Part shown: positions 2,603 through 47,767 of the stretch, piece after piece
Layout: each line of letters opens with the position of its first letter
Numbering within the stretch: the stretch's first letter is position 1
From: Purpureocillium takamizusanense
Taxonomy: Eukaryota; Ascomycota; Sordariomycetes; Hypocreales; Ophiocordycipitaceae
Direction of reading: 5' to 3'
Length of the DNA: 64,000 bases
Assembly: GCF_022605165.1 (NCBI RefSeq)
Contig: NC_063077.1
Location: 1,116,001-1,180,000 of the forward strand
The notes under the pieces: model-generated
Told to the model about the DNA's origin: nothing
Database searches by the model: none
Seen by the model: only the letters and a program-made list of their open reading frames with translations
Program-made: the position numbers and the translations under genes

Positions 2603-2960
2603 ATGGTCAGATGTAAGAAGAGCAATGCTATAAATAACTAATTGATTTGGTCCCAAAATCGTGTTTCTTGGATCGTGGCTATCGCCCTGAAGTCTGGGGC
2701 GGCCTCGATGGGGAAATGTGTCGGGATGTGGTACAATGATGTCAAGCTTGCAGCAGAGTGACTACTCTGCCGTGAGCGGCCCCGCCCCTTGTGGTCGTCA
2801 TATATCACCCACTGATAGACGGTCAACAACAGCCTTGTAGCCCTCAACCTCACGATCCAAAACGTGTTTCGCGTGGGAATCTCCTAGAAGCGACGCTACA
2901 CCCATCGATACACGAAGCAAAGTCTCTGCGGCCAGTGGCTTTCTCGACGGTCAGGTCACA
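2603..2960. other. Short intergenic spacer
   Basis: This 358-base spacer lies between two plus-strand genes. It should contain the Dabb 3' end and the cupin promoter. No repeat or RNA gene is visible. Confidence 0.4.
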
Positions 2961-3539
2961 ATGGCGAAACTAACGCCACTGTCTTCTCTCCGCGTATCCC
3001 GCCACTTGATCCCAGCGTGGGACATGATTCCAAACACAAGCATACAGAACCGGCCCCTTCTGATCTACCACGGCGTCTTCCCGGCCGCAACACCGCCCAG
3101 CGCGGTTGAGGCACACCTCGCCCGCGTGGGCGTCGTGGAAGCCCAGTGGCGCTCCACCATGTACGACACGACGCACTTCCACAGCAACACGCACGAGGTG
3201 CTGTGCGTGACGCGTGGCCGCGCGCGGCTCTGCTTCGGCGGCGAGGACAACCCGGGCCGAGTAGAGCCCGTCGTCGAGGGCGGCGACGTCGTCATCGTGC
3301 CGGCTGGCGTCGGGCACCGCCTGCTCGACGACATGGGGTCGTCGCAGGGCGGCGGCGGCGGCGGCGGCGGCGGCGGCTTCCAGATGGTGGGCAGCTACCC
3401 CGTCGGCGCGCCGGCATGGGACATGTGCTACGGACGGGAGGGCGAGAAGACGAGGCTCGAGGGTATCGGGAAGCTGGGCTGGCTGGAAAGAGACCCCATC
3501 TACGGTGACGAGGGACCCGTTTTGAGTGCGGAGACGTAG
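2961..3539 (+). CDS. YjlB-type cupin protein
   Basis: A single exon encodes 192 aa. Cupin motif 1 is present with metal-ligand candidates His72, His74, His78 and Glu79 (HFHSNTHEVL, then TRG), and motif 2 is GDVVIVPAGVGH with His119, so the full 3-His/1-Glu set is intact. The N-terminal RHLIPAWDMIPN and the C-terminal LGWLERDPIYG resemble YjlB-like cupins, a widespread group with unknown substrate. An odd feature is a run of ten glycines (residues 130-139) encoded by a GGC repeat just before the strand starting FQMVGSYP; it is a likely slippage expansion in a surface loop. The gene is tandem with the Dabb gene and convergent with the MFS transporter. Confidence 0.88.
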   Translation: MAKLTPLSSLRVSRHLIPAWDMIPNTSIQNRPLLIYHGVFPAATPPSAVEAHLARVGVVEAQWRSTMYDTTHFHSNTHEVLCVTRGRARLCFGGEDNPGRVEPVVEGGDVVIVPAGVGHRLLDDMGSSQGGGGGGGGGGFQMVGSYPVGAPAWDMCYGREGEKTRLEGIGKLGWLERDPIYGDEGPVLSAET

Positions 3540-5389: not shown

Positions 5390-7542
5390 TTAGCACGTCT
5401 GTGCGCGACGGTTCAACCAGTTGTACATTTCTGTACGCGAGTCGCTCGATCGCGGCGACGAAGAGTTCTGGTCCTTGGTAGAGGGTGACAGACGAACAGC
5501 GGCGACGCGGTTCTCCAACGGCGTCGGGTGCCGCTCGAGGGTAAAGAGCGACACGATGACCATGGCGGCGCACACGGCCATCATGACGTCGACCTCCTGC
5601 TCAAAGGCCGCCACGTAGACGCCCGTGACTCGCCTCCGCAAGTCCTCGGGCAGCCTCAAGCTGGAGAGGGGCGAGCGAAGCAGGTCCTTGACCTGGGCCC
5701 ACGTCAGCACGCCGCCGCCCGACAGGTCGTGGTTGACGTGGGCGTTGAACATGACGGTGCAGATGGAGAGGCCGACGCAGCCGCCAAAGACGCGGGCCTG
5801 CGCGATGGCGCCCTGGGCCGAGGCGCGGACGCTCGGGTCCGCGGCCAGGACGCTGGTCATGATGGTGGCGGCCGAGAAGGACATGCCCACGCCGAGGCCG
5901 AAGATGGCCTGGTAGCCGTACTGCGCGGCCTGGCGGGAGTCGGACGTGGTGATGGTGGTCATGAGGCCCACGCCGAGCAGCTGGAGGCACGACGAGCCGA
6001 GGAGCGTGAAGCCCGTGTTATTGCGCTTGCTGGAGACGGCGCCGCCGACGAAGGACCCGAAGGCGCAGCCCACGAGGAGCGGGAGGACGTGGACGCCCGC
6101 CATGAGCACGTTGTCGCCGCCGGCGATCTGGAAGCGCTCGGGGATGACAATGGACAGGGCAATGTACGGGAAGCCGGTGAGGAGTGTGAGGCTGTAACGG
6201 ATGTTAGTTCTGATGACAGAGAGAGCATCATGGTGATGCAGCTCACAAGAGTCCGGCAACATAGACCCGCAGGCCGATGAGGCGCATGGGGAAGATGGGC
6301 TCGATGTGCCCAATCTTCTTGGTCCCGAGAAACGTCTCCCACGCGACGAAGCACACGCAACACACGCCCGACAGCGTGAGCGAGACGATGACGGCGTCGC
6401 TGTCCCAGGCGTACGTCTCGGAGCCGGCCTGCTGGACGGCGAAGATGAGCAGGCTGGAGCTACAGAAGAGCGAGGCGCTGCCGAGGAAGTCGATGCGGGA
6501 GAAGCCCGCCCACGAGAATAAGCTCTCGGCATGCTCCGGCGGCCAGAAGTTGGCGATGACGACAAGCGTGACGAGGCCGCAGGGGAGGCTACGTGTGTGA
6601 GAGAGAGCATCAGGTCAGCTAATGGGCTTGGCCGTTGTTGCTGCGAGACATTCTGTCTGGCGCAGAGAGTTGGGGGGAGACGTTATCCGTACTTGATGTT
6701 GAAGATCCACTTCCAGTTTGAAAACTGCGTGATGACGCCGCCGAGGAGAGGGCCGAGGACAAAGGCGACGGCCAGGGTGGCTCCGATCGCAGCCCCGATC
6801 ATGGCCGGTTTATCGACGGGACCGACTTCCATGAGCGCGATCTGCGTGAGGCTGTACATGCCGGACGCGCCGATGCCCTGGAACGCGCGACAGATGATGC
6901 TATATCACAGTCAGCTTCTCAGCATATCTGACTGGGCAGCGGCATATGAGCCGCCAGGTGTTGCGTACAGCGTGGTCATGTTCTTGGACAGCGCGCAGCC
7001 CAGCGAAAAGCTCATGAAGATGATCCACGACAGCATCAGCGTGTTGCGCCGGCCGTATATGTCGCTGAGCTTGGAGATGCACACGGCAAAGCCTACGGTA
7101 AAAGCCAACCATCATGAGCTCACATACGTCAGCAAGGAGCCGGCAGCTGGGGCGAGACGAACCCATGTAGGTCAAGAGGTAGGCCAGGACGATCCATGGC
7201 GCGTTGACAAAGTCGTCTAGCTCATGGGATATGGTGATGAGCGCCGTGGACACAATGGAAGTGTCGAGGCTGGAGAATAGCAAGCTGACCAAGAGTCTAA
7301 AGAGTCGCGTCAGCGTATATTTCTACAAACTACCAGCCGCTGCATAATTCGAGAGCACGCTGGGCGACGGGGAGGGTGGTGAGGGCATCGCACGCTATGA
7401 AGAGAATCGTTCGACGGACGCCGCGGAATCTCTCCTTGGCCGGCGTCGTCTTGTCCTCGGCCGCCTTGCCATTCTCACTGCCGGGGGCCTCCGAGGTGGC
7501 CACCTGGTCCAGCGACGAAGTGGAAAGATGCTCTTCCGCCAT
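5390..7542 (-). CDS. MFS drug:H+ antiporter-type transporter (DHA2/14-TM family)
   Basis: Six exons (7542-7394, 7296-7163, 7092-6969, 6899-6693, 6588-6247, 6191-5390) join in phase to about 585 aa. After a roughly 45-residue hydrophilic N-terminus, TM1 carries the DHA2 signature SSLDTSIVSTAL. The loop between TM2 and TM3 has motif A (SKLSDIYGRR), and TM5 has the antiporter motif C (LGPLLGG). About 14 hydrophobic segments are expected for this family. The last exon contains the long second half, including YIALSIVIPERF and a Ser-rich cytoplasmic tail. The first intron uses the weaker donor GTGCGA; that choice gives a perfect TM1, whereas reading on meets a stop. DHA2 proteins export drugs and secondary metabolites across the plasma or vesicle membrane. 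Being the nearest gene upstream of the PKS, it is the probable product exporter, but 5.6 kb lies between them. Confidence 0.92.
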
Positions 7543-10500
7543 CGTTCACGCGGGGATCGTGCGTGTGGTTTTTGGGGGCGTCGTGATCAATGCTCGCAGA
7601 GCCAAGAAAGACGGCGAGAGGAACGGGCGGGCCCCCCTTCCCGCTGACGATGGCGATGAGAGAGAGAATGTGCAGGTTTCGGGGGGGAAGAGCTGACAGG
7701 GCGTGAACGTGACACCACCGTGCGCGTGTGATGGGGCCTGTGAATGTGCGCCCGTGTTTCTGGTCAGTACTCGGCGTTGAGGCGAGACTGTGCAGAGCAC
7801 AGGGCAGCTATGCCCATGTCGCGAACGCGAGGGTGCCCGTCACGAAAAATGGTGAGGGTGAGTGAGGGTGAAGGCCGAAGTTCTGCGTTGCTTGTCTCTC
7901 CTCTCAAGACCACGGGCGATCCCTTAACTCGCGCCGCGTCAGCATATGCTTCAATGTTCTCGCCGGATACGAGGGGAGGAGGGAAACATACAACGATGAC
8001 GCCGAGCTGAGCTTGCAGACGATCGACAAGGCGTGACAAAACAGGCTGGCTGGCTCGGTCACAAGTCAGACTCTGAGGGGCGTCGTCGGGCCAGCAACTG
8101 CTGAGACGGGGTGGCTAGGATTCGGCCACATATGTGATGGATCTTCTGGCTGTGAAGGAAAGAAGAAGAAGAAACTCAAGGGGTTCGGGAGGCAAGGTGA
8201 CTGTGTCTTCGAGGAGGGAGGGGGGGCATGCACGTCCGACGTTGACATGCAGAAGAGAGGCTACTGAAACGGTCCCTCGGGTCTGTGTCTAGTTTCACGG
8301 GCCGACACGAGACCTTGCTCGACCACGAACGTTATGTATACAGGAGGAGGGGGAGGATAAGGAGGGGGGAAGGGTTCCCTATCCGACTTTCCACCGCCTG
8401 GTGGGTTTCCCTGCGGTGCGATAGTCTGCACGGCACCGTTGAGCAATGATGGGTGTCACAGCAACGATTGAAGTCGCTGTGCTCCCCCCTCCCTCTTCAG
8501 GCCCCCAACTAGAGCCGAGTCAAGGTGAGGCCTGCTAACATGGGAGATCAAATGGGCGTTGCCCGCCCCCTCCCCCCTCATCCCTGCTGTGAGATGGTCA
8601 CCGACACCGACACCAGACGAGGGGAGGTGGACACAGATTTTAGGCGAGCGGCCGCGTCAGATGGGACGAACCGATGCAAGTCCCTGAAGCGAAACGGGCC
8701 GTCATTGGAGAGAAAGGGATCTGGTGGCTGGCCCAGGTACTGTTACTGTACTTACACACTACGTATTAGGTAGCCAGCTGGCCTGAGACTTGACGGTGAG
8801 CTTGAGAAGATACTACTAGTAAGTACTCGACATGGATTACCTACAAGTTTCCTGTGTTGTACGCGGCGTCGAACTGTGCTCTGTACCAGAGCTCTGGTTC
8901 TTGGGCCGCTGCATGCGCCGAGCCCTCGTTCGACGAAGCCGCAGTATCCGGCCGCGAGGTGCAAGGGAAGATTACCCTCAGTGGTCCGTGCTGGGTTTCA
9001 ATGACAAGCCACCTATGCAGTACTAGTATACATACTTCGTCTCGAGGCGGCTGAGCCCTGCGTGTCTATCAAGTAACGTTAGTAACTATGGCGCGGGTTC
9101 CTATCTCCGGCCGCCTTCCCGCCAACAAGGGCGGGCTTCCCGTCTGCAGCGCTCCCTCGGCACGTACTGTATGTACGCAATTCCTGCATGGCGATATGGA
9201 GACGCCTACAGGCCAAAGTCTGGGGGCGGAGGTAACCTTCATGGATGCTGCATCTGGACGTTCTGGCCTCAACCTCAGGCTTTGTAAGTTGGTATTTGAT
9301 GCAGGCAGTCTTGACGGAGAGCGAGGCCCGCCGCGACATCATACCGATCCTTTTTGTTCAAGCCGGGCATCGATCTCGGGATTGTTGTGGCCCAATGGTG
9401 CTACCTCAGTACGATCCTTGCTGTCTTTTTTTTTTATTCGTCTCATGTTGATAGCCCTTGGCTGAAGGAAGGGACAACAAGAAGAAGGGCGGCGTTGCCC
9501 TCCCCTTTCCCCAGCTTGGATGCTGCCTGGGGCTGGCTGTTCGATAAAGCACGAGCGAGCAAAGGTTTTTGCCTTGTTGGTTGCACACGATGGCGCATGC
9601 CTTTCCGTACGCGCCCACTTTTGGAGTTTCACAAAGGACGCACCGACCGCTACGATCCCGTTGCACGGCAGCGCGGGCGTGAGAAACAGGGCGCCAAAAA
9701 GTGAGAAGCACAGGGGGATTCATGTTGTCGGGCGCGGCGCGCGCGGGCGTGAGTCGGGCCAAGTGTCACCCCAACCTCGTCTGAACCGAACCCGTCCGCG
9801 TGCCGCCCCTCCCCATTGATGTCGTGTCAGGAGCGGGTTGCGTTGCCAGTCGTCTGGCACGAAGCAGATAGTATGGGGGAAGAGAGAGAAAGGAGAGCCC
9901 CTTTTTCTTTGATGGACAGTGGACATGAAATTTGCAACAAAGTGGGACGAGGGCCGCCCGTCCTTTCAGGCAATATAGAGCGCGCCTCAAGAGCCGATGG
10001 CCCTCAAATCCATGTACTCACTCACTCTATCGATCGCCCGGTAGGGTATGACGTTGTAAGTGCCTAGATACATGTAGCTATCGACAACAATGCATGGGAT
10101 CGACATGGTCGGGCCGACGCCCGCAGACCAGACACCAACTACTGCAAGATAGTCTCGTGGCAGCTGAGACAGCAAGACACCGACATGCGTCCAGACCTAG
10201 TAGCCGCCTGCACCTCGCCCCTGCTGTTTGCACGGGAAGGTGACACGCATGGGGAACTAGAGGCGGATCCAGAACGACGCGTTTCCCCTCCAAGCCCCCT
10301 TTCAGGTGCCGTGTAACTACGAGCGGGTGACTGGATTGTCTGGTGCCTGCCCGCGGAAGCAGCTTGAGCGCATGGGGCTCCGGGCGAGAAGGGTACGTGG
10401 AGGGATGGACTCGCATGCAGTTGCTGACGGACGGACGATTCTCAGAAACTAACCTTGGAAATAGACGCCTCGTGTTGAGGCCAGACGACTCCTGCGCAGT

Positions 10501-12917
10501 ATCCCAGGGGGCAGAGGGCATCGACCTAAAAACCATCAGGATAAGGGTCTCGGATTACGCCATGGGCCCACCATGTGACAGCAGAGCAATATACTACTGC
10601 GAAACTATTCTGTAGTCTGTTTAGTACTGTAACTGTCATCAGTCTGGTCCGCGGCCGGAGACGGTCCTATGCGCGGGCCGTGCACGGGGCTGAATGAGGC
10701 TCACGTTGGGCCTGCCGCAGTAGCGGACTGGTAGACGCATGCCGTTTCGGGGAGTAGCAGGTATTGTACAGTACTCACGCTCTGGTGCTTCAACTTCATG
10801 TTCCCAGTATCCGCATGCGGCATGCATGTACGAAGTATGTATGGATGCCACGCAGGCTGGGCGGGAGGGGAGGCCCGCAGACATGGAAGTAACATGCTGA
10901 CATGCACCCATCCATCCAGCTGCGGAACGCGAACCGGACAGCCACTCATGGGCCGGCGTGTTGGAGACTTGTCCAACGTTGTGGTACATTTCATGTTCTC
11001 AGTTTGTGCACGCCATCCTCTCCATGTACCAGACCCCAGCTCGTTGCCATGTGCTGTATCGTGTATCCCCTGTCTGCTGGACTTATGAGCGGTTCCCTCT
11101 GCCTCAAGTAGGTATTATTACGGTTCGTCGCCGCAGTTTTCGATGTTACAGATCAGACGTCATTGTCTTGCAGAGCCTCGTTGACGGGGCCACTCAACTG
11201 TCTTTCTGTTCTCAGAGAAACCACATCAGCAACGTACATACAGGGGAAAACATGTCTTGAAAGGGCAAAGACAATGCCTGGGCGGCGTAGAGCCCAGACG
11301 AGTTTCAGACGGTTCATTCGGGCAACGTCCTTTGCCATCCGGCTCCTGAGCTGCTGTCATACCCACTCCCAGTCCGACTCCCATGTCGCCCATTCCCGTG
11401 GCCTATGGCGGGCGGCAATCTCGCCGCGCAACCCATTTTAGGAAGCAAGTCTCGGGAACTCTACCAGCTGAGGTCGCATCATCTCGCTGGTGTTTGGTTC
11501 GGCGGTCCCTCCCCCCCTCCCCGTCATGCCTGACGAACGGCTGCAACAAAGCTGGCTTGGCCAGATGAGGCCCTCATCCGCGCCCGCCAAGAGCGCCCAA
11601 CGGCCCGCAACTAGGTCGTTGTCATACCATACAATACGGAGTACAGCCACTAACCACTATTGCACAGCGCTACTGTATCGCCTTTGAGTTGTGTGTGGTC
11701 TTTTGGTCTCGACAACGCGTTCATCGGATAGTTGCACTTGTTGATCTCTAGCTCACATTGATATTGCCACCAACCAACTGTGTAACTAACTGCCCATGTC
11801 TGGTACGTGTCGCTATTTGATGCATGTACTGTGTACGCACCAAGTTGATGAGACTGGATGAACCTATAGCAAGCGACGGGCACTTACCGCAAGTGCGACT
11901 TGAGCTCTTGCTACTGTAGGCTTTCGATCCCAAAAACTTCTGACAAATCGTAGATCTGGGACGAGGGATCCGTTTCTGCTTGTATTGAAGGACTTGTTCG
12001 AATGTCTCATCCAGTCCGGGTAAAGTCTACATGTAGCTAGCCTCGTGCTGAGAAACGCAACATAGTCCCCCCCTTATACCATGCGGCAACGACGCCCAAC
12101 TCACAAGATGCCCAGTTCCTCTGTACCATGGTTCCCGAAGCCGAAGCCGCGTGCCGGGTCAGCTTGCGTCGAACGGCCGTGCTGACCACCCACACAAAGA
12201 GTCCAGATGTCATAGGATCGCAGGGTCTGTCCACTTACATCACATTTGACAGAGGCCTCCCCAAGGTGGGCGGCGAGTTGAGGGCACGCTTCTCAACTGC
12301 CACGCCTCTCCAACAATGTAAGGCTCAGAGATCTTGCGGGACCCCTTGATTTCTCCCCCAGGTTGGAGCCGTTTGATAAGTACTGCGGAGGTGATATCTG
12401 GGGCTGAAGATTATTATGACATGTGACGGGTCCGTGTAAGTGGGTGCTGCTGCAACCTAGGGGGACTTGAGGGGGGGCCTCGATATGGTCACGACCAGAC
12501 GGAGACTTTTTTTTTTGGCGGGCTTGGCTCTGCCATCACCCTCTCTCTTCGGCCGCGGACATAATCTTGTACTCTTGGCCCTACTGGTTGGGCGCTCGCA
12601 TCTGTCATCCCGGCGGGTGAGGCTATTTATGACTCTTGGGTCCGAAGTTTTCTCCCCTCTCTCTGAAACCCGTGAAAGTACAGTACCTGGGTCCTAGACA
12701 AGGGCTCATCTAAGACCTCGAGGCTCTCTCCGCCTTTTCTTTGTGAAGAAGAATCCATGAGTCCGGCTCGGCTTTGGTCCTCGGCCTGACCGCAACGCCT
12801 AGGTCCATCTCACTTCAGCCTCACTCCCCGCTTCGAAAGCCGGCCCTCTTGTCTGGAGCCGCCCAGACCCAAAGCAGTGAATGGGGGCACCGACGCCGGG
12901 CGTCAGTTAAATATATC

Positions 12918-12930
12918 CGGGTTCTCCCCG
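12918..12930. promoter_or_regulatory. CGG-N7-CCG palindrome in the PKS promoter
   Basis: The sequence CGG, seven bases, CCG lies about 230 bases before the PKS start. Inverted CGG half-sites are typical targets of fungal Zn2Cys6 activators, which often sit in such clusters. Binding is inferred; no Zn2Cys6 gene is seen in the window. Confidence 0.4.
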
Positions 12931-12949
12931 ATTGCTTGAGGAGATAAGC

Positions 12950-13005
12950 GTGTATTCAACCCAACTTGGAAGAGCCCGTGTACTCAACCCAACCTGGAAC
13001 AACCC
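12950..13005. repeat. 28-bp tandem duplication in the PKS promoter
   Basis: Two adjacent 28-base units (12950-12977 and 12978-13005) match at 24 of 28 positions and share the core TCAACCCAAC. They lie about 160-210 bases upstream of the PKS ATG, next to the CGG-N7-CCG element. A duplicated unit at this position is a plausible regulator-binding module or part of the transcription start region. Confidence 0.7.
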
Positions 13006-13162
13006 GGTGTCAAGAGACTGTGGCGCTCCTGCATGGATCATGATCGAGGCCCACAAGCACAACGACTTCATTCACTAATATCACTAGTATAAGATTAGTC
13101 CCAGAACCAAATATCTAGCATTTCTTCCCTTTTGCTTTTCAAAATCGAAGTCGACATCGATC

Positions 13163-16100
13163 ATGGAAGACATTGCAGTGATCGGGCTCGGGCTGCGGTT
13201 TCCAGGGGACGCCAGCTCCCCTGAGCGGCTCTGGGACGTTCTCGCCGAGGGCAAGTCACAGTGGTCCGAAATCCCTCAAGACCGCCTCAACATCGATGGC
13301 TATTATCACCCCAGCGGCGACCGGGAAGGAAGCGTGAGTATTTCCAACCATGTACGGGGGCTCAAGTCTGGTGAGCAACATGTTGACGGCACTAGATCTC
13401 CTTTCGCGGCGCACACTTTCTCAAAGGGGACGTGGCCGCGTTCGACGCACCGGTAAGCGGGGGCTTTCATATTCGGCGACTTTTCTGCAGCCATGACTGA
13501 TTCACGGCACGCTAGTTCTTTTCTGTTGCGGCCGAAGAGGCTAAAGCGGTTGATCCGCAACAGCGCATCCTGCTCGAGGTTTCGTATGAAGCCATTGAAA
13601 ACGGTGAGTGCCTTGGTGAGATGGTACCAATAACGGAAGCACGACTTACACGGCTATAGCGGGACTTCGCAAGGAGGACGTCGACGGCAGCGACACTGCA
13701 GTCTACGTCGGCTCATTCGTCAAAGGTTGGCTAGCTGTCTGCTCTCGCGAGTTGGAGTAAATCTGACTCTACGTGTAGATTATGAGCAGATTTGCGTAAG
13801 AGACCCGGACTGGTCACCACAGTATGCGGCGACGGGCAACGGTATCGCCATCATGGCGAACCGGATATCGCACTTCTTCAACTTTCATGGTCCAAGCATG
13901 ACCCTCGACACGGGCTGCAGCGGCAGTCTCGTTTCGGTCCACCTCGCGGCGCAAAGCCTGCGAAGCGGAGAGTCGTCTTTGGTAAGTTGTGCTGATCCTG
14001 GGGGGGGAAGAGGGAGGGGGGAGGGGGGTCCATGGCCAGAGATCATCGCTAACATGCTGCGAGGCCCTGGCTGCTGGTGCGGCCTTGATCCTGACGCCGG
14101 CGACGATGATGCCCATGACGGCGCTCAACTTCCTCAGCCCGGATGGCAAGTGCTTCACCTTTGACTCCCGAGCCAACGGCTACGGACGCGGCGAGGGCGT
14201 CGGCGTCGTGGTGATGAAGAGGCTCTCGGACGCGCTCCGGGACAACGACACCATCCGCGCCGTCATCCGCGGCACGTCGGTCAACCAGGACGGCAGGACG
14301 CCGGGCATCACGCTGCCCAGCAAGGAGGCGCAGGTGGCCAACATCCGCCGCGTCTACGCCAACGCCGGCCTCGACTTTGGCCAGACCGCGTACGTCGAGT
14401 GCCACGGGACGGGCACGCAGGCCGGCGACTGGCGCGAGCTGGGGGCCATCTCGGAGACGCTGGGCGCCGGTCGACCCGCGGACAAGCCGGTCCTTGTCGG
14501 CTCCGTCAAGCCGAACGTGGGGCACCTCGAAGGCGCGGCCGGCGTGGCGGGCCTGATCAAGGGCGTCATGGTGCTTGAACATGGCCGGATCCCGCCCAAC
14601 ATCAACTTTGAGAAGGGCAACCCGGACATTGACTTTGAGGCATGGAAGGTCAAGGTATGAATTGGAACCCCTCCCTCCTGCAAAGACAAAGACACACCGG
14701 GGAAGATAAAAGGCTTCATTCTCACAAACAGTTTGCTAGGTTCCCCAAGCGGTGTTGGACTGGCCGGTAGCAGGCGTCCGCCGCGTGAGCGTAAACAGCT
14801 TCGGGTTCGGCGGCACCAACGCCCATGTCATCATGGATGAAGCGCCAGTCTACATGTCTGAGCGCGGTCTCGAGGGAAACCACAGCTCTATCGTGGCCGC
14901 GACGACGCCCATGCCCGGACAACAAGGAGTAAGTGCCGAGAGCGGGCTCTCTGGCGGCGAACTCCTGCATCTATTCTGCTATTCATCACACGACAAGGGC
15001 GGCGTCTCGAGGATCATCGACTCTCATCTCGAATTCCTCCACGACGCAGAGGAGGATCGCGGCACGCAAGAGTACCTCCGCGACTACGCCTATACGCTCA
15101 ATTGTCGCCGGTCCGGCCTGGAGTGGAAGGCGTTCATCCTCGCCCGGTCCCTCGCGGACCTCGGCTCCAAGTCTCAGTCCTTGGACCCCGCGACCATAGT
15201 CCGCTCCTCGAGGGAAAAGACCCCTCGAGTCGGCTTCCTCTTCTGCGGCCAGGGGTCGCAGTGGGCGCAGATGGGCAAGGGCCTCATGCCGCTGGAGCCG
15301 TTCCGCGCGAGCATCGAGCAAGCCAGCCGCTACTTGCACGATAAGCTGCTCTCGCCGTTCAACCTCCTCGAGGAGCTGCTCCGTCCGGAGGCGGAGTCGG
15401 CCATCGGAGAGCCGCACATCTCGCAGCCGGCCACGACGGCGCTGCAGGTTGCTCTCGTGGACCTCATGGCGACGCTGGGCGTGACGCCGACGAGCGTCGT
15501 TGGCCACTCTTCCGGCGAGATTGCCGCGGCGTACGCCAAGGGCGCTCTCTCGCGGGAAGAGGCATGGGAGGTGGCCTACTACCGTGGGCTCACGGCGGCG
15601 AGCATCCCCTGGCGCGCGCCCAAGCTCAAGGGCAGGATGATGGTGGTGGGCATGTCGCAAGACGAGACGGCCAAATATCTGCGGTCGGTGAACAAGTCGG
15701 CTCAGATTGCCTGCATCAACAGCCCTCGATCGATTACGATATCGGGTCAGGAGGAGGCCATTGAGTTCATCGACGCGGACCTTCGAGAGAAGAAGGTCTT
15801 TTGCCGTGTCCTCTCGGTAAAGACGGCTTACCACTCGTCGCATATGAAGCTCGTGGAGCACGACTACAAGGCCCTGCTCGCCCACATGAGCCCCCGCCAG
15901 GGCCGTTCGTCGGTTCGCATGTTCTCGTCCGTCTCGGGAAGCGAGGTCGACGGCAGCCACCTGGACGCGGCGTATTGGGCCGCCAACATGGTATTTCCCG
16001 TGCAATACGTCGCCGCAGTCGAGGCCATGATGGCCGCACCTGAAGAGGAACGGCCGGGCGTTTTGATCGAGCTGAGTCCGCGGGCGGCTCTTCGGTCTCC

Positions 16101-19100
16101 AACGGCGGATATCCTGTCGAGTGATGGCCCATCGAGCACGCAGCCCTCGTACTACTCCGTACTCGATCCCCGCCAGGACGCCAGCACATTGTTCCTCGGG
16201 CTCATCGGTGGGCTCTGGTCCCGTGGATGTGACATCGACATGGCGAAAGTCACGGGTCTCGTGTCTGGTGGCTCTCGGGCCAAGTGTCTCTCTGAGCTGC
16301 CCCCTTACCCCTGGAACCACAAGAGATCGTACTGGCACGAATCCCATCAAAGTCTGTCCGTCAGGTTCCGGGAGCACCCCCGGCAGGACCTCATCGGCGC
16401 GCTGACAGTTGACTCTACACCCTTTGAGCCCCGGTGGCGCGGCTTCCTGCGCGTGTCGGAGAACCCCTGGATCCAAGACCACCAGGTGCAGAAGACGATT
16501 GTCTACCCGGCCGCGGGCATGATCTCCATGGTGCTGGAGGGCGCCAAGCAGATTGGGCGCAACGTTCCCCAACTGCTCGGCTATGAGATTACAGGCATGC
16601 AGATCGACAGGGCCATGATTGTGCCCAACACGGCGTACGGCCTCGAGGTCATGCTCGTCATCAAGTCGCCGCACCGCGAGTCGGCAGACGGGTTCAGCCT
16701 TGACAAGAATGACTTCTCCATCTACTCGATGCATCAGGGCCGTGAGTGGGAGCGCAACGCCACGGGCTCTCTTTACTTTCGACAGCGCTCCCACGGCCGA
16801 GAGGCGGCCTTCCGCACGCAAGCGGCGCGTCACGAGGCCCTCGAGGGCTCTTGCAAGGAGACGCTCAACCCGCGGCAGCTCTACGAGTTTCTCGACACCG
16901 TCGGCATGAACTACGGGCCGCTGTTCCAGAACATGACGGAGATTCGCAGGGACAGCGGCCTCGGCGCCTGCGTCAGCACCGTCCGCGTCCCCGACACGCG
17001 CTCCAAGATGCCCGCCAGGTTTGAGTATCCGCACCTCCTCCACCCGGCGACGCTCGACGCCATGTTCCAGACGCTCTTCGCCGTCGACTCCTCGCCCATG
17101 GTGCCCACCTCCATCGCGAGCATATTCGTGTCCGCCGACGCGGGCGCCGCCCCCACAGACGTGCCGTTTAGGGGCTACGCCGAGGCGAGGCGCAGCGGCA
17201 TACGCGACGCGGACGCCACCATCGTGATGAGTAGGCATGGGGGGGAGTCCATGTCGCGGACCGAGCACGTCATCATTGAGGGGCTGCACATGACGGGCCT
17301 GTCCTCGCCGTCGCCTGCCGAAGGGGGCTTCTTGCCGAACCATCGCAACTTGTGCACTGAGATCCTCTGGGCCGAGGACGCGGCGTTTGCGAAGCCCACG
17401 TCGTTCGCCGAGTGCGTGCGGCTCTTCGCGCACAAGTGTCCGGCGCTCGCAGTGCTGCAGGTCGGCGGAGGTATCTCAGCTGCGGCGGCAGTCGTTGAAT
17501 GTCTGCGTCCTCAAGATGACGAGACGCCGCGCCTCGCACGTTTCACGGCCCTGGACCCTGACACGGACGTCAGCTCCCAAATTCTTGCCCAAGTGAGGGG
17601 CACGACGCTGGAACCTTTCGTCGAGCTCCACCCAGATGGCTCTGGCTTGTTTGCCGACTATGACCTAATAGTCGTCCTCGATAGTGCCGTTGTTGAGGAT
17701 GAGACTCTGCGGACACGACTCAAGCCTGGAGGCGTATTGCTGCGGCATGGTGCCGGTGTAGACCAGGCAGAATTGTCGTTTGAACCTTCGTCAGGACCAG
17801 CTCTGCCACTCACAAGCTACAGGAAGGCCTACAAGGCCACTGACGGCCAAGATGTCGTTGTTCTCGTGCCCCAATGCCCCGACCAAGACGTCGCCACCCT
17901 GTCCGACACCGTCCAGGGGCTCGTCAAGCAGGCCTGCCCAGGGATCGAAGTGACCTCGATGTCCATCAACGACTTAGAGAAGGAGTCAACATCTCTCGGC
18001 GGTAAGATCGTGGTCTCCCTCCTCGACTTCGCCGGCGCCAGCGCCTCGGAGAACTACTCCGTCTTCGCATGGACCGAACCCGACTTCGATGCCTTCCGCA
18101 CACTCCAGCGCACGGCAAAGGGCATCGTCTGGCTCACCCGCGGAGCCCACATGACGCCCCTCAACCCCAGAGGCGCGCCCATCATCGCGCTCGCCCGCAC
18201 GCTCATGTCCGAGGACCCGCTCAAGACCATTGTCACCCTGGATCTGGACGAGGCCTCGCGCCTCACCGATCCTGCCGTCGGGCAGGCCGTGTTGCGCGTC
18301 CTGCGCCAGACGTTCCACGTCAAGCACGGCGCTGAGCCGCGTGAGACGGAGTACGCCGAGAAGGACGGCAGGCTGTACATTCCCAGGCTCGCGCCTGTGT
18401 GGGGGCTGAACAGACTGGTTGAGGATGAGCACTTGCACGGCGGGTTCCTGCAGTTGCCGTTTGTGCCGGAAGAGGACGTTGTTGAGCAACAGCATCAGGG
18501 CTTGAGACTCACTATTGCGAAGCCGGGTCTCACAGACGGGTCGCTCTACTACACCGAGCTCGAGCATCCAGAGCTCGGGGACGATGACGTGGAGATCTCC
18601 TATGAGAAGGCATCGTTGACACACCTCGATCTGGACACGGTGATGGGAAGGACGGTCGACGATACCCTCGGGGTTGACGTCGTGGGCCGCGTCAAGCGCA
18701 TAGGCGCCAACATCACGCACGTACGTGTCGGCGAGCTCGTTGCGGCTCTCGCCCCCGGCGGGACGATCCAGAGCACCGTCTGCACCAAGGGATCCCTCGT
18801 GGCAGGCTACACCCCCGGCTTCTCACCAGCTCTCCACGTCAGCGCCTATTACGGCATCGTACACCTGGGCAGGGCCGGGCCGGGCCGCAAGGTCCTCGTC
18901 CACGCGGGCGCGAGCGCGTACGGACTCGCCGCCGTGCAAATGGCCGTCTCCGTCGGCGCCGATGTGTACGCCACCGTGCTGGGAGCCGAGGCGTCGCAAC
19001 AGCGAGAGGCTCTCGTCGCTCATGGTTTGCCCGAGGAGCGTGTTCTCGATGCGGACTCGGACGGCTTCGTCCATGGTGTGCTGGCGGCGAGCGGCGGCAA

Positions 19101-20854
19101 GGGATTCGACGTCGTGTATAACCCGACGCAGGCTCACATCGAAGCGAGCTCCAAGTGTGTCCGCAAGTGTAAGCCCGTCTCCTGAACATTCTCCCCCCCT
19201 ATTTCCAGTCAAGCACGTGCGGCAGCGATACTGACCAGGCTCTCTAGGCGGGACGATTGTCCAGTTTGCCAGCAGGTCAGCCGCGGCACGAGCACTGCCA
19301 GCAGCACCAGGTGGCTCGGCGACTATCGTGAGCTTTGATCTCGGCCAGCTGATGCGCGAGGATGCGGACTTCGTCGCAGAGCTGTTTGATAAAACGGCGC
19401 CGCGCATCCAGAGAGAAACCTTTGACGCATCACGACGACAATCCAACATTGACCACGTCTTGGAAGTCGGCCAGCTACCGGCTGCTCTCGACAAGATCCA
19501 AGCGACGCCGTATCTTGGGCACATCACACTTACGGCCGGCGGTACAGTCCCGGTCATCAACACCAGCCCGACGAAGCCCCTCTCAGCATGTCTCGACCCG
19601 GAGCGCACATATCTCCTCGCCGGCGGGCTCGGCGGCCTAGGTCGCAGCATCTCGGATCTTCTCGTCGCCAATGGCGCCCGGCACCTCGCCTACCTCTCCC
19701 GCGGTGGCGCCTCGTCCGCGACGGCGCGCGAGTACCTCGCCAGCCTGCGGGCACGGGGGGTCGACGCACGCGCGTACGCCGTCGACATCTGCGACGCGGA
19801 CGCCCTCACGGCCACGCTCGGCGAGACCCTCGCCGTCGAGATGCCCCCCGTCGGCGGCGTCTTCCAGTGCGCCGCGGTGCTGCGCGACGCCGTCTTCGAC
19901 AACATGACGTGGGAGGACTGGGACGCGGCCATCAAGCCCAAGGCGCTCGGCTCGTGGAACCTCGTCCAGGCGATTGAGGCCACCGCGGTGGTGGCCCCCC
20001 ACGCCCAAGACGGCGAGACGCAATATCAACACGGCGGCGACGACGGCGACGGCGACAACTCGAGCGGCCGCCCCTTCTTCGTCTTCCTGGCCAGCTCGGC
20101 CGGCGTCATCGGCAACCGCGGACAGGCCAACTACGCCGCCGGCAACGCCTTCAAGGACGCCCTGGCGCGCAACCTGCGGCTCCGCGGCCGCCACGCCGTC
20201 GCGCTCGACCTGGGCCCCGTGCTGGGCGCGGGTATGCTCGCCGAGGACGAGGCCGTGCTGGACATTTTGCGCGCGAGCGGCTTCTACGGCATCCGCCACG
20301 GCGACTTCCTCAAGCTCGTCGCCCACGCCATCACCGGGGAGACGACGACGACAGGCATCCCCGGCGCCGCCTCCTCGCCCATCCCGCCGCAGGTCACCCT
20401 CGGCGTCGGCACCGGCGGCATCATCCGCCAGAACCAGCCCGCGGACCCGTACTGGTCGCGCACCGCGCTGTACCGCTACCTCAATCTCGTCGACGTGCCC
20501 GCCGCGCCTGACGGCCTGTCGCAGGCCGCGGCCGGGTCTGCCGCCTCCTCCTCCTCGTCCGGCGACCTCAAGGCACTGCTCGCGTGCTGCGAGAGCGTGG
20601 GCGCGGCGGCCGACGTCGTGCAGCGCGGGCTCATGGGCATGCTCGCCAAGGCCATGAACATGCTGCCCGAGGAGGTCGATGCCGGGAAGCCCCCCAACGC
20701 CTACGGGGTGGACTCGCTCGTGGCCGTCGGGGTGCGAAACTTCGTCATTAGCAGCTTCGGCGTGCAGGTGTCTGTGTTTGAGATTCTTAGCGACGGGACC
20801 ATTGCGGAGCTGTCATTGATGATTGTCCAAAAGGGGGGATACGGGAGAGCCTAG
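13163..20854 (+). CDS. Highly reducing type I polyketide synthase (KS-AT-DH-psiMT-ER-KR-ACP)
   Basis: Eight exons (13163-13333, 13396-13452, 13516-13603, 13660-13725, 13779-13981, 14064-14654, 14740-19168, 19248-20854) join in phase to about 2403 aa. The KS (about 1-425) has its catalytic triad: Cys174 in DTGCSGSL, His309 in ECHGTGT and His349 in NVGHLEG. The AT (about 554-900) has Ser649 in GHSSGE and the YHSSHM motif. The DH (about 938-1245) has His973 and Asp1165, but the usual HxxxGxxxxP has Lys977 in place of Gly. Residues about 1250-1640 hold only a degraded C-methyltransferase/structural region (VLQVGGGIS). The ER (about 1648-1945) has its nucleotide motif near 1777. The KR (about 1986-2250) has AGGLGGLG at 1993, a Ser pair at 2151-2152 and Tyr2164, with a polar Gly/Asp insert before the Ser. 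The ACP has Ser2358 in YGVDSL. There is no thioesterase or reductase. It should make a reduced acyl chain without alpha-methyl branches. It is convergent with the OMT. Confidence 0.95.
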
Positions 20855-21145
20855 GACGAAGCCGTGCTGAGCTGATGAGCAGCGAGAGGTGGATCAATGT
20901 ACATGTTTTCGAACATGTCGCTGTCGTTTACTTGAGCGTAGGTTGGCAACGTAGTAATTCGTTTATATTTGCCATCATGTTGTGTTTATAGATCAGACTG
21001 CTGCTGACTTTTGCTCTCTCTGCACATCACGATTCACCGCAGCCAGTGACCAGACTACATAGACGACGACTGCTCCAAACGTAGCAGCACCTCCAAGCCC
21101 CAACAGCAAATCAGAACCCCTCCCAAAAAAGACAGGGAAACCGGC

Positions 21146-21156
21146 AAAAAAAGAAA
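21146..21156 (-). terminator. RNA polymerase III terminator of tRNA-Gly
   Basis: On the minus strand, a T-rich run (TTTC followed by seven T) starts four bases after the tRNA discriminator base. This is a canonical Pol III stop. Confidence 0.85.
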
Positions 21157-21159
21157 CGC

Positions 21160-21241
21160 TGCGTGATCTGGGAATCGAACCCAGGGCTCCCCGACGTTGC
21201 GCGGATGGCAACGGAGAATTTTACCACTAAACCAATCACGC
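21160..21241 (-). tRNA. tRNA-Gly (GCC) with an 11-nt intron
   Basis: The minus strand folds as a tRNA. The acceptor stem GCGTGAT pairs with ATCACGC. The D arm is of the GTTTAGTGGTA type, the anticodon stem CTCCG pairs with CGGGG, and the T arm CTGGG-TTCGATT-CCCAG is perfect, followed by discriminator A. The space between the anticodon stem strands is 18 nt instead of 7, which fits a loop TTGCCA..T with anticodon GCC plus an 11-nt intron placed after position 37, the standard eukaryotic site. It lies inside the PKS/OMT interval and is transcribed by Pol III. Confidence 0.95.
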
Positions 21242-21640
21242 TGTTTTAGGTGGATTTGTATCGCCAGAACCGGAAGGCATCCGATCTGATTGATGGAAGG
21301 GAACTGCGTTATTTTCCTACAAGTTGTCTGCCCCAGAGAACGATGGGCTGCCACAGGCTGTGGGTTGGGGCTGCGGCCCGGCGCGGCTCAATCGGAGGTG
21401 TGTGTGGGGCCGGGACTTCCATTTTGAGGCCAGGGGCTCGGAGGCCGCACATGCAGGCATAGCGACACTTCAGGTGACCGGAGAGGAGGAATAGAATACA
21501 CACTTTTTGTCCCTATTTATTAATCTCATATGAATACGTGACTCGACTAGATGGCTCTTGTCCCGGTAGACATCTTGTATATGACAGATTTGTACAGTGC
21601 ACACCAGCAATGACTCGCTCGGCCCCTCAGCTGCTCACAC

Positions 21641-23353
21641 TCACTCACCGTCCGCGTCGGGCACTTCCGCGTCGCCATTCTGCTCGGTTCCTGTGGCTTT
21701 GGAAAGCTCGGGCTCCCACACCGCCTCCACGATGCTCATGCGGCAGCCCTCGATTCGCTTGGCTCCTTTAAAGGCGAACCGCGGGTCCGCCTCGGCGAAG
21801 AGCGCCTTGAACTCGTCCTCGCGGCGCTCCTGGGCGTTCAGCAGCGCCAGCATAACCATATCCATGCTGCGCATCAGCTTTTCGTCCCACGGGCCATCAA
21901 CCCCAGGCTGTTCCAGGCAGTGCTCGTTGATGATAACACGAGCGCCGGGCTTCAGCGCGGGCACCAGGTTTCGCAGAAGCTTGACCGCGTATGGGGTGGA
22001 GTAGTTGTGCACAATCCATCTGAAGTAGTACACTGAGGGTGTCGAGTCAGTATGACCATGAACGACAACAATCGGGTCGGTGTGACGTACCGTCGGCGCC
22101 ATGGATGGGCTGCTCCTTGAAAAAGTCGTGCACCTGAAAGTCAATCCGCTCCGCCACCGACTCATCCTCATATATGGGCTTGGGCGCGGACTCAACCGTC
22201 TTGGGCAGATCCTGCACCACAAACTTGATGGCGTTCCATCTCCTTGCCAGCTCAACACAGACGAACCCATGACTGCCGCCAATGTCCACGAAAGTGCCCT
22301 TCTGTTCGTTCACGGCACCAAGGTCACATCCATCGACAAAGTACCGTACCTCGTACCCGGCCGTTCCCGTCAAGCTCATCATTGCACCACCGAACCGCTT
22401 TGCTCTTATGGGATCCCTGCCCAGCGTTACAAACATGGGCTCCTTGTCGACAGTATCAAAGGCATAGTTGAAACCCGTCTGTGTAAGTGAGGTGGCTTCC
22501 GGGTGCGCTTGTAGGGCGTCCACCACGCGAGCTGCCGCGGGAAAGTGGTCCTCGGCGTTGAATCCAACCCAGTCCCGCAGGCCGATGTCACTCGCGAGCA
22601 GGCGGGAGGCGGCCGTATGAGCTATGACACCGAGCGATGGCTCGCAGAAAATGCCGTTGGTCATTGCATGACGCAGGACGCGGGCAAGGTTGATTGGGTC
22701 GAGTGTCGTCTTGGTCTGCAGCTCCGACAGAGGAATAGGGGTATCCAGGGGTACAAGCTTGGCTGGGTCGGTCAGATGAGACAACATTTGCATCGACACG
22801 TACGCTGACTTACCAATATCATATTTGTTGACGACTTGCAGACTTAGCGTATCCAAGAACTGCGGTCCAAGTCAGCTCGCGCGGGTGGTGTGGTGTGTCG
22901 ATTGACGGAAAGACTTACAGCCCACGCGCCCCATCTCACACATTCTCTGGGGCCCCGTGCGAGTCTCTCCAGCTCCTGGCACGAGTTGGCAATCTCTTGC
23001 CGACTCTGCTGGACATCGCTCGGTAGGTCGGGATAGTCTTCTGGAGCGTCGACGCCGAATGCTGGCTCTGGTAGGCTGTTGTTCTTAAAATACGTCTCTA
23101 CCCTTTCAGACTCGGCGACAATCTTCTTGGCGAGCTCAACCATGCGGAATTGGCCATTAGGCGCTCCCTCTTGAGGCACAGGTTTTTCATTTGGCACAGC
23201 ACGAGGTTCGGAGGCTACGGTGGTCTCGGGCCGCGCCTTGAGACTGGAGAAGCCGGCAAAGGAGCGGCGATTCTGCTTCTTGCGCTCTTTCTCTGCGTCC
23301 GCGGCGGCGGGCGACGGCGACTGGAGCCACGACGGGACCCTGAACTTGGCCAT
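21641..23353 (-). CDS. SAM-dependent O-methyltransferase (Methyltransf_2 type)
   Basis: Four exons (23353-22919, 22859-22814, 22762-22091, 22032-21641) join in phase to about 514 aa. The first exon (145 aa) is a Ser/Lys-rich N-terminal extension followed by a helical segment. The middle has the helix-rich dimerisation part (AKLVPLDTPIPLSEL). The SAM-binding motif VDIGGSHG is at about residues 317-324, followed by FVVQDLP, and the catalytic-base region FRWIVHNYS has His393. These are the landmarks of fungal class I OMTs that methylate phenolic or enolic oxygens of polyketides. It is convergent with the PKS and separated only by a tRNA gene, so it is the most likely tailoring enzyme of the cluster. 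The second intron was placed so that YDI joins AKLVPL, as in relatives; reading through would also be open, so that junction is less certain. Confidence 0.92.
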
Positions 23354-29526: not shown

Positions 29527-29949
29527 GCGTTTTGTGCCTACTCAGACGCGAGGCGTACCATGCCGAAACGACACGAGGGGCGCGGACGTTGAGTCTGGAT
29601 GGTGCCGACGGAGGAAGATGTTGGACGGCGGGGCGGCGAGACGCAACCGGGGAAAAGAGGGCGGACCCAGAGACTGTCAAGCGGACGGTCGGGGCCGAAG
29701 GCAGTCTGAGTTGGTCCAGAAGGGGCGTAAAAATGAGCCTCGATGTGTAGGCGGGCTGCGAGTGGCCTTGCCTTGGGGGTGGAAAGCAAAGGCCACCTGA
29801 TGAGGCGACTAGTGGCTGTTGGTTGCCCGTCGTGAACGGGGCGCCGCAGGTCTCCGGCCCAGCGTGTCTGTCGACCTTGTTGCGTGCGGTATGCGAGCCG
29901 TGGTGCGACGGTGCACGGGAGACGATGGCGATGCCTGTCGTAAGGTATG

Positions 29950-38499: not shown

Positions 38500-39041
38500 A
38501 TGCTGCCGCTACGGAAGGGTGCTTTGTTTGACGCCTTGGATGAGCGGGGCGCAGAGTACGACGATGATGAGAGATGATGGGGTCATGACTGCGGCATGCC
38601 TTTAATATACCCTCATGGGCGACGTGTGTCGGATTGTCTTTTTCTACATTGGGTATCGACAGAATATGCCTCCGCGGCCATTGTGTAATTACAGAGAGTT
38701 GCGAGGTACTTGATGGTCGGCTTAAATATACACGGAGTATACTTTGTAAACGTCCAAATTCACTTGACAAGCTTGCGAGTGTGAGTGTCCTGCACGTATA
38801 TGACGAAACACGCGCGGCCTAGGCGGCGCCCAAGCCCGTCCTCTAAATATCCATACCTTACTGTATACCTGCTGCTGCTGGCTTGACACTCACCTCACCC
38901 ATCCTTTACCTCACCTCATCTCATCTCACCTCACCACCTCACCACCTCACCACCTCACCACCTCACCACCTCACCACCTCACCACCTCACCACCTCACCA
39001 CCTCACCACCTCACCACCTCACCACCTCACCACCTCACTCA
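38500..39041. other. Convergent spacer, partly minisatellite
   Basis: This spacer lies between the stop codons of the annexin gene and the EthD gene. Its right third is an 8-bp tandem array; the rest has no recognised feature beyond probable 3' UTRs. Confidence 0.5.
38924..39037. repeat. 8-bp tandem array (CACCTCAC)n
   Basis: About 14 near-perfect copies of an eight-base unit (ACCACCTC in register) end four bases before the EthD stop codon on the minus strand. The left edge decays into CTCACCTCATC-like variants, consistent with older copies. Confidence 0.9.
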
Positions 39042-41168: not shown

Positions 41169-41426
41169 CAACTCTCACGCCACGGCAGGGCCGTTCGTGT
41201 TCAGTTATTCCACACTGTCTCTACGCGTGACTGGTTGAGGACACAGGAGCCGTGGGTGGAAAACCCCTGTCCGCCAATACACACGCGGACATGCTGCGCA
41301 GTGTATGCGGCTCAACGCGGAATAGTGGATGAAATCGGGTAGCGATGAACAGCTCAGGGCATTGCAGTACTTGGCAATGCAGACACTGGCTCTTGGCTAC
41401 TTCAAATGCCAACCCATCGCCATGCC

Positions 41427-47478: not shown

Positions 47479-47767
47479 ACCTACACGCACCGAGTATTCC
47501 GACACTCACATTGAGATTGATACTCACCGCCACCCATACGCAAGCCCCATCGACGTCGCTGAGCGTGAATACCGAGAGCGTTACCGCCCCCAGTATTCCA
47601 CCACCGTAGACGCCCCTGCCCGCCCTCAGTACACCGCCGAGAGCGTCAAGGTCAACGAGCACACCGTCGACGGAGCCACTGCCCGCCCTTCCTACACGGA
47701 AAACGTCAAGATCACCGAGGAGACCGTTGAGCCTTCCCGCTTCAACCTCGCCAGCCAAAAGTCCAAC

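What the first reader, a model, noticed from the sequence alone, without database searches (positions are those of the whole stretch)
5390..23353. Candidate HR-PKS gene cluster: exporter, PKS and O-methyltransferase
An intact eight-exon reducing PKS lies between a DHA2 exporter and a convergent O-methyltransferase. The PKS lacks any release domain, and no esterase, hydrolase, P450 or Zn2Cys6 regulator is visible nearby. A minimal PKS + OMT + MFS set predicts a small reduced, O-methylated product, or a pathway completed by genes elsewhere.
Basis: partly seen in the sequence, partly recalled or inferred. Interest (0 to 1): 0.75.

Follow-up and report, generated by a model that had tools for sequence, protein, structure and literature searches.

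The report
Conserved fungal polyketide locus, PKS7 type
A three-gene stretch of a fungal genome (a polyketide synthase, a methyltransferase-like enzyme and an exporter) looks like the local copy of an old gene set found in many relatives, whose synthase appears to match a Fusarium enzyme needed to finish sexual fruiting bodies and whose product is still unknown.

Summary
In Purpureocillium takamizusanense (spliced PKS and MFS identical to its GenBank proteins) a DHA2-type exporter, an intact eight-exon PKS and a convergent O-methyltransferase-like gene lie at 5390-23353. The set is not species-specific: of the 120 best PKS relatives, the 117 with an organism name are all Hypocreales, the PKS tree follows the families, and in 11 species (9 genera) PKS, OMT and MFS relatives share one contig. 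By elimination and published identity values this is the orthologue of Fusarium PKS7, whose deletion blocks perithecium maturation in two species and whose product is unknown. 'Highly reducing' is misleading: KS, AT, DH, KR and ACP catalytic residues are nearly invariant in the 120, but the ER dinucleotide loop reads GGxG in none, and the C-methyltransferase is a short remnant. I predict an unbranched, unsaturated chain, perhaps released as a pyrone or acid, O-methylated and exported; chemistry and pathway membership of OMT and MFS are inferred. A rival, that the 'OMT' is an OMT-fold pericyclase, is less likely. New member of a known kind; interest moderate.

The parts
5390..7542 (-). DHA2-type MFS exporter gene; exons 7542-7394, 7296-7163, 7092-6969, 6899-6693, 6588-6247, 6191-5390; 585 aa
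   Evidence: translation equals P0241 JDV02_009861
13163..20854 (+). type I iterative PKS gene, 8 exons: 13163-13333, 13396-13452, 13516-13603, 13660-13725, 13779-13981, 14064-14654, 14740-19168, 19248-20854; 2403 aa
   Evidence: identical to P0001
13163..14853 (+). KS domain (aa 1-430; Cys in DTGCSGSL, His in HGTGT and GHLEG)
   Evidence: genomic limits
15232..16134 (+). AT domain (aa 557-857, GHSSGE)
16375..17295 (+). DH domain (aa 938-1244); His and Asp kept, but HxxxG is HxxxK in this clade (116 of 120)
17341..17805 (+). short remnant in the place of the C-methyltransferase (aa 1260-1414, 155 aa); no Pfam methyltransferase match at E up to 1
17842..18396 (+). structural pseudo-KR (aa 1427-1611; PF23114)
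18499..19522 (+). degenerate ER (aa 1646-1960, interrupted by intron 7); dinucleotide loop HAGASAYG in place of GGVG
19610..20395 (+). KR domain (aa 1990-2251; GGLGGLG, YxxxN)
20567..20827 (+). C-terminal ACP (aa 2309-2395; GVDSL)
21641..23353 (-). O-methyltransferase-like gene (Methyltransf_2), exons 23353-22919, 22859-22814, 22762-22091, 22032-21641; 514 aa; SAM motif VDIGGSHG, RWIVHNY

Best explanation
The locus is the Purpureocillium copy of an ancient, vertically inherited Hypocreales locus MFS-PKS-OMT whose PKS is the orthologue of Fusarium PKS7. INFERRED BY ELIMINATION: orthology with PKS7. INFERRED: the PKS works as KS-AT-DH-KR-ACP with a non-functional ER and no C-methylation, so it builds an unbranched chain that keeps its double bonds (polyene type); with no release domain the chain leaves the enzyme spontaneously (for example as an alpha-pyrone if the last extensions are not reduced) or by a hydrolase elsewhere; the OMT-like enzyme methylates a hydroxyl or carboxyl of it; the DHA2-type transporter exports it. 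Because PKS7 is needed for perithecium maturation in two Fusarium species, the product is most likely an endogenous developmental metabolite rather than a weapon against hosts.
For: Of the 120 best PKS relatives (of 7855 hits) 117 bear an organism name and all of these are Hypocreales genera, 48-100% identical (order membership recalled); in a tree of 72 of them 6 of 7 families form one side of a branch, all with support 100. Contig sharing: of 116 PKS rows with a contig length (of 120), 28 share an exact contig length with one of 120 OMT rows and 32 with one of 120 MFS rows (83, the other 37); 11 share it with both, in 9 genera; 15 and 15 of the pairs are on contigs under 300 kb. Neighbouring locus tags, e.g. 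Ophiocordyceps australis CDD81_3061 OMT / 3062 PKS / 3063 MFS; Fusarium lateritium ACHAPT_000876 OMT / 000877 PKS; Conoideocrella QQS21_003024 PKS / 003025 MFS. PKS7 identity: F. solani-complex members against F. graminearum 61-66% and among themselves 74-92%, against published 62% and 80% for PKS7; [quoted passage not shown] PKS8 has an MT; only PKS2, PKS3 and PKS7 were in all Fusarium genomes of Wiemann et al.. Knock-out phenotypes. Active-site counts among rows that cover the site: KS Cys 117 of 117, AT Ser 120 of 120, DH His 119 of 119, KR YxxxN 118 of 118, ACP Ser 117 of 117; ER GGxG 0 of 120. Mean pairwise identity over 116 long rows: KS 81.7, KR 66.1, DH 58.6, ER 41.7, psi-KR 42.0, MT remnant 36.6. 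OMT His-Asn in 120 of 120 hits.
Against: No direct sequence link to accession FGSG_08795 could be made. The published PKS7 complementation amplicons (3,498 + 6,287 bp including about 1 kb of flanks) imply a gene about 1.2 kb longer than the roughly 7.5 kb expected here. In 25 of 120 relatives the second Gly of the ER loop is kept, and in the window protein ADH_N and ADH_zinc_N still pass their Pfam cut-offs, so residual ER activity cannot be excluded; I have no rate control from a clade with a proven active ER. The OMT occurs well outside Hypocreales (41 such rows in the tree), so it is older or wider than the PKS partnership, and a methyltransferase next to PKS8 in F. fujikuroi proved irrelevant to gibepyrone. 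MFS and PKS are 5.6 kb apart; no 9- or 10-mer is shared by the three 1-kb promoters and 8-mers less than in random triplets of window DNA (1 against a mean of 5.3). In the OMT tree Purpureocillium groups with Hypocreaceae (support 96), not with its own family. Genes apart in some relatives: Stylonectria OMT g4802 and PKS g6445, Cordyceps sp. RAO-2017 OMT CDD83_2962 and PKS CDD83_6188 (other contigs), O. camponoti-leonardi PKS 9-10 tags from OMT and MFS, O. camponoti-rufipedis PKS and MFS on different contigs, Cosmosporella OMT and MFS tags 27 steps apart. F. fujikuroi PKS7 was not expressed in any of four culture conditions.
Confidence: 0.6

Rival explanations
1. Ordinary species-level secondary-metabolite cluster for a small, highly reduced, O-methylated compound used against hosts or competitors.
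For: Gene types fit a minimal PKS-OMT-exporter cluster; the ER fold is still recognised by Pfam in this species; the likely Fusarium orthologue is silent in culture, as many clusters are.
Against: Wide vertical conservation, 0 of 120 relatives with GGxG in the ER, no C-MeT, developmental phenotype of the likely Fusarium orthologue.
Confidence: 0.15
2. The PKS acts alone; OMT and MFS are merely old syntenic neighbours with other duties, as reported for the methyltransferase beside Fusarium PKS8.
For: OMT relatives exist well outside Hypocreales and are more conserved than the PKS (mean identity 63.7 against 55.7%, MFS 70.1%, in the 11 species); the PKS8 neighbour had no effect; no shared promoter words beyond chance; Stylonectria and others have the OMT elsewhere.
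Against: Co-location of all three persists in 9 genera of 5 families (family assignments mine) although the proteins have diverged to mean identities of 55.7, 63.7 and 70.1%.
Confidence: 0.3
3. The OMT-like protein is an OMT-fold pericyclase that cyclises the polyene made by the PKS.
For: Its closest solved relatives in sequence and in fold are the pericyclases PdxI and HpiI (142 and 130 bits against 90 for GedA; Foldseek 1.7e-32 against 1.3e-24 for the best methyltransferase); a polyene would be a suitable substrate.
Against: At the residue aligned with PdxI Lys337 (its catalytic role is recalled; a listing shows PdxI and K337 in one paper) this family has Asn in 120 of 120 hits, after the usual OMT His; a D or E follows, as in GedA and the Pleurotus enzyme. 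Identity to the pericyclases is only about 26%.
Confidence: 0.1
4. The PKS is orthologous to another Fusarium PKS (PKS2 or PKS8), not PKS7.
For: PKS2 and PKS8 are also widespread in Fusarium; a methyltransferase lies immediately downstream of PKS8 too; amplicon size of PKS7 is larger than expected.
Against: PKS2 and PKS8 carry a C-MeT, which P0001 and the F. graminearum member P0086 lack; published values are 55/82 for PKS2 and 62/80 for PKS7, against 61-66 and 74-92 here; the transporter named beside PKS8 in F. fujikuroi is an ABC type, not an MFS.
Confidence: 0.12

Closest known systems
Fusarium PKS7 (FGSG_08795; FFUJ_06260; Neo_006055)
   Same: Near-universal in Fusarium, identity pattern between and within species complexes, unknown product; the F. 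graminearum clade member P0086 is two locus tags from the same MFS
   Different: Accession sequence not compared; role in Purpureocillium untested; published amplicon size does not fit well
Fusarium PKS8 / GPY1 (gibepyrones)
   Same: Nearly stand-alone reducing PKS conserved in Fusarium with a methyltransferase gene immediately downstream
   Different: Has a C-MeT and an ABC transporter neighbour in F. fujikuroi; methylated pyrone product; its neighbouring methyltransferase is not part of the pathway
Neurospora/Sordaria pks4
   Same: PKS needed for fruiting-body development (passages)
   Different: Groups with lovastatin, compactin and betaenone synthases; its named Fusarium homologues are PKS9 and PKS10, not PKS7
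Polyene alpha-pyrone pathways (aurovertin, citreoviridin, asteltoxin, verrucosidin)
   Same: PKS plus SAM methyltransferase giving an O-methylated polyene alpha-pyrone (gene roles recalled; shared pyrone core from an abstract listed)
   Different: Those clusters also have a monooxygenase and hydrolase (recalled); none seen here; their chains are C-methylated (recalled)
PdxI and HpiI pericyclases / GedA O-methyltransferase
   Same: Fold and N-terminal domain like PdxI/HpiI; His-Asn/Asp-aromatic active-site motif like GedA
   Different: Lacks the PdxI lysine; only about 20-27% identical to these

Membership tests
Fusarium PKS7 orthologue group | Present throughout Fusarium, and distinct from the MT-bearing PKS2 and PKS8 | tested here: met
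   P0001 and F. graminearum P0086 lack any Pfam methyltransferase at E up to 1; Fusarium species of many complexes are in the clade. That PKS7 itself lacks a C-MeT is not stated in any passage I read
Fusarium PKS7 orthologue group | Identity pattern 62% F. solani complex to F. graminearum, about 80% within the complex | tested here: met
   61-66% and 74-92%
Fusarium PKS7 orthologue group | Direct sequence match to FGSG_08795 | not testable with these tools
   Accession sequence not held; MFS tags FVEG_01913 and SNK05_005144 only suggestive
Fusarium PKS7 orthologue group | Gene size | tested here: inconclusive
   Amplicons imply a longer gene
Fungal highly reducing PKS | KS, AT, DH, KR and ACP with catalytic residues | tested here: met
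   Residues kept in 116-120 of 117-120 rows; activity not tested
Fungal highly reducing PKS | Functional enoyl reductase (absent or inactive in some members) | tested here: not met
   GGxG in 0 of 120; middle Gly kept in 25 of 120; ER diverges as fast as the structural psi-KR; by motif only, and the window protein still passes the ER Pfam cut-offs
Fungal highly reducing PKS | C-methyltransferase (optional) | tested here: not met
   155-aa remnant, no Pfam match in the three proteins scanned
DHA2 drug:H+ antiporters | Best match to DHA2 family, 14 helices | tested here: inconclusive
   TIGR00711 best but below cut-off; 12 hydropathy peaks
Methyltransf_2 O-methyltransferases | SAM motif and catalytic His with acidic partner | tested here: met
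   VDIGGSHG-type motif and HN conserved, D/E in 120 of 120 hits; activity not tested
OMT-fold pericyclases (PdxI type) | Lysine at PdxI position 337 | tested here: not met
   Asn in 120 of 120 hits; role of the lysine recalled

The most novel reading that the evidence does not exclude
PKS7-OMT-MFS is an order-wide developmental signalling locus: one exported, O-methylated (or pericyclase-folded) polyene, made by a synthase that shed enoyl reduction and C-methylation in the hypocrealean ancestor, is needed for fruiting or sporulation throughout Hypocreales, and is kept even in Purpureocillium species best known as moulds.
Probability: 0.3. Interest if true: 0.75.

Novelty: new member of a known kind. 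Interest (0 to 1): 0.48.

Why it matters
PKS7 is described as the most conserved Fusarium PKS (201/206) and one of three F. graminearum PKSs still without a product (passages), yet its loss stops perithecium maturation in two species. The present analysis extends that gene to many families of Hypocreales, proposes two concrete partner genes by conserved location, and predicts the chemistry to look for (an unsaturated, not C-methylated, possibly O-methylated chain), which makes the product question testable in several tractable fungi.

Tried and rejected
UvPomt of Ustilaginoidea virens looked like a functional lead for the OMT but is a PCMT-type protein, Uv8b_00301, not this family. Shared promoter words of the three genes: none beyond chance. 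Sieber et al. 2014 was searched for PKS7 and its locus tags; they do not occur in its main text. Neurospora/Sordaria pks4 as orthologue: rejected, its clade is the lovastatin type. My first MFS exon 1/2 junction was replaced by the GenBank model. Clonostachys pks7 numbering is its own and says nothing about Fusarium PKS7. No DNA of fungal relatives was fetched, so gene order in relatives rests on locus tags and contig lengths; no chance control was computed for contig sharing. The lists show only the best 120 of 7855, 471 and 1608 hits, so absences cannot be judged.

Rows dropped: 4 of 120 PKS rows have no contig (P0065, P0073, P0084, P0094). Of 120 MFS rows 83 were entered and the other 37 compared with the PKS contigs only (no match). 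Contig length is that of the longest contig of each 90% cluster, so it may stand for a sister genome. Three PKS rows (P0037, P0061, P0118) bear no organism. Trees: 72 of 120 PKS rows (one listed row, P0076, fell out as too short) and 100 of 120 OMT hits plus the query; families were assigned by me from genus names (recalled), Cordyceps sp. RAO-2017 being placed in Ophiocordycipitaceae by its similarity. Papers were seen only as passages or as search listings.
Full report
WHAT IS THERE. The window is from Purpureocillium takamizusanense (an insect pathogen, recalled): the spliced PKS equals GenBank protein P0001 and the MFS equals P0241 (JDV02_009861) letter for letter, both listed on a contig of 1,331,511 bases. 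The PKS has eight exons (13163-20854, +), all introns GT..AG, 2403 aa. Its 3' end faces the 3' end of a four-exon OMT-like gene (23353-21641, -); a tRNA-Gly lies between them. A six-exon DHA2-type MFS gene (7542-5390, -) is divergent from the PKS across 5.6 kb in which a codon-usage scan finds no segment at its threshold.

HOW WIDESPREAD. Of the 120 best PKS relatives (of 7855 hits) 117 bear an organism name, and all of these are Hypocreales genera, from 81% identity in P. lilacinum down to 48% in Beauveria. In a FastTree of 72 of them Nectriaceae, Hypocreaceae, Ophiocordycipitaceae, Clavicipitaceae, Cordycipitaceae and Stachybotryaceae each form one side of a branch with support 100; the two Bionectriaceae are on long branches and unresolved. 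This points to vertical inheritance, not a recent cluster.

THE NEIGHBOURS GO WITH IT. 15 and 15 of the pairs are on contigs under 300 kb, a small part of any such genome; I computed no chance control. Locus tags differ by one for PKS-OMT in Aphanocladium, Akanthomyces lecanii, O. australis, F. lateritium and T. harzianum, and for PKS-MFS in Conoideocrella, O. australis, Hirsutella minnesotensis, Stylonectria, F. zealandicum, F. solani, Neonectria punicea, Fusarium NRRL 66182, F. torreyae, F. commune and Lecanicillium; by two in F. graminearum (MFS SNK05_005144, PKS 005146). Exceptions: Stylonectria and Cordyceps sp. RAO-2017 have the OMT on another contig, O. camponoti-rufipedis has PKS and MFS on different contigs, O. 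camponoti-leonardi has the PKS 9 and 10 tags away from OMT and MFS, Cylindrodendrum has PKS and OMT 5 tags apart, and Cosmosporella has OMT and MFS 27 steps apart (same calls). The OMT is not tied to this PKS everywhere: 41 rows of its tree are from outside Hypocreales (Colletotrichum, Neurospora, Diaporthe, Hypoxylon and others) and form one side of a branch.

WHICH KNOWN GENE. Wiemann et al. 2013 state that only PKS2, PKS3 and PKS7 occur in all Fusarium genomes they examined (passage). PKS3 makes the fusarubin-type perithecial pigments (that it is non-reducing is recalled). PKS2 and also PKS8 carry a C-methyltransferase (passages), whereas the F. graminearum member of this clade, P0086, has no Pfam methyltransferase. 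In F. neocosmosporiellum PKS7 is given as 62% to F. graminearum and 80% to F. euwallaceae, the lowest value within that species complex (passage; the paper uses both 'identity' and 'similarity'); here F. solani-complex members are 61-66% identical to F. graminearum and 74-92% to each other (complex membership recalled). PKS7 is thus the best assignment. Its deletion gives, as I read the table's abbreviations, smaller perithecia without ascospores and abnormal conidia in F. graminearum, and aborted perithecia without asci in F. neocosmosporiellum, restored by complementation; the product is unknown, and PKS7 is called the most conserved, 201/206. Loose ends: the amplicon size implies a gene about 1.2 kb longer than expected, and F. 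fujikuroi PKS7 was silent in four culture conditions.

HOW THE ENZYME PROBABLY WORKS. Among the 120 relatives, rows that cover the site keep the catalytic residues of KS (117 of 117; 119 of 119 for both His), AT (120 of 120), DH His (119 of 119) and Asp (116 of 117), KR (loop 117 of 118, YxxxN 118 of 118) and ACP (117 of 117). The ER dinucleotide loop, GGVG in functional reductases such as mycocerosic acid synthase and CurK (GGAG in CurF), is GGxG in 0 of 120 rows; the second Gly is kept in 25 of 120 and is Ala, Ser, Pro or other in 95. ER diverges as fast (mean pairwise identity 41.7%) as the structural pseudo-KR (42.0%), against 66.1% for KR and 81.7% for KS in 116 long rows. The C-MeT is a 155-aa remnant. 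I have no clade with a proven active ER as a rate control, and in the window protein both ER Pfam models still pass their cut-offs, so 'dead ER' is an inference. It predicts a linear chain that keeps its double bonds. The closest working analogy is the polyene alpha-pyrone pathways (abstract; gene roles recalled), where the pyrone serves as release and its hydroxyl is O-methylated.

THE OMT-LIKE ENZYME. Its nearest solved relatives are the pericyclases PdxI and HpiI in sequence and, for a model of the P. lilacinum protein P0121 (mean pLDDT 80.6, 50 sequences), in fold. The active site speaks for a methyltransferase: a VDIGGSHG-type SAM motif, and RW-x-x-HN with His-Asn in 120 of 120 hits, where PdxI has His-Lys; the acidic position is D or E in 120 of 120. 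I rate methyl transfer far likelier than a pericyclic role, but no activity was measured.

SURROUNDINGS. Beyond about 35 kb the window holds housekeeping-type genes: annexin, SDR, NFACT-type, eIF5A-like and bleomycin-hydrolase-like proteins. A LaeA-like methyltransferase gene lies at about 29541-27561 and a cupin ORF at 2841-3539. No P450, Zn2Cys6 factor or esterase was among the 27 stretches scanned; the window was not scanned whole.

NOVELTY. The gene itself is in GenBank and its likely Fusarium counterpart is published. What I did not see in the listings and passages reached by the 10 literature searches is the MFS-PKS-OMT conservation across Hypocreales and the vestigial ER and MT of this clade; the genus-wide Fusarium PKS survey cited (Brown et al. 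2022) was not read and may describe part of it.

Noticed in passing
window 27561-29541 (-): LaeA-like methyltransferase gene (motifs YHRFREGTYNFPNDD, VLDIGTGTGIWAIE, GIDLSPIQPDWLPPN, LKPGGWIELQE; weak Methyltransf_23) about 4 kb beyond the OMT; whether it belongs to the locus is unknown.
   Followed up: partly
window 21160-21241 (-): tRNA-Gly (GCC) gene between the 3' ends of PKS and OMT.
   Followed up: no
window 7543-13162: 5.6 kb without coding signal between the divergent MFS and PKS genes, with a near-tandem 28-bp repeat at 12949-13006 upstream of the PKS start.
   Followed up: no
window 21641-23353: The OMT of P. takamizusanense itself is absent from the listed protein hits although PKS and MFS of the same genome are present, so the public annotation may lack or misjoin it; several relatives bear the odd name 'alpha-1,3-mannosyltransferase cmt1'.
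   Followed up: no
PKS DH domain, window 16471-16509: The DH motif HxxxGxxxxP reads HxxxKxxxxP in 116 of 120 relatives, a clade signature of unknown meaning.
   Followed up: no
window 2841-3539 (+): Cupin-domain ORF with a GGC triplet run at 3348-3377.
   Followed up: no
window 35693-51303: Housekeeping-type genes: annexin, SDR, NFACT-type (Rqc2/Tae2-like, recalled), eIF5A-like and peptidase C1 (bleomycin hydrolase-like).
   Followed up: no
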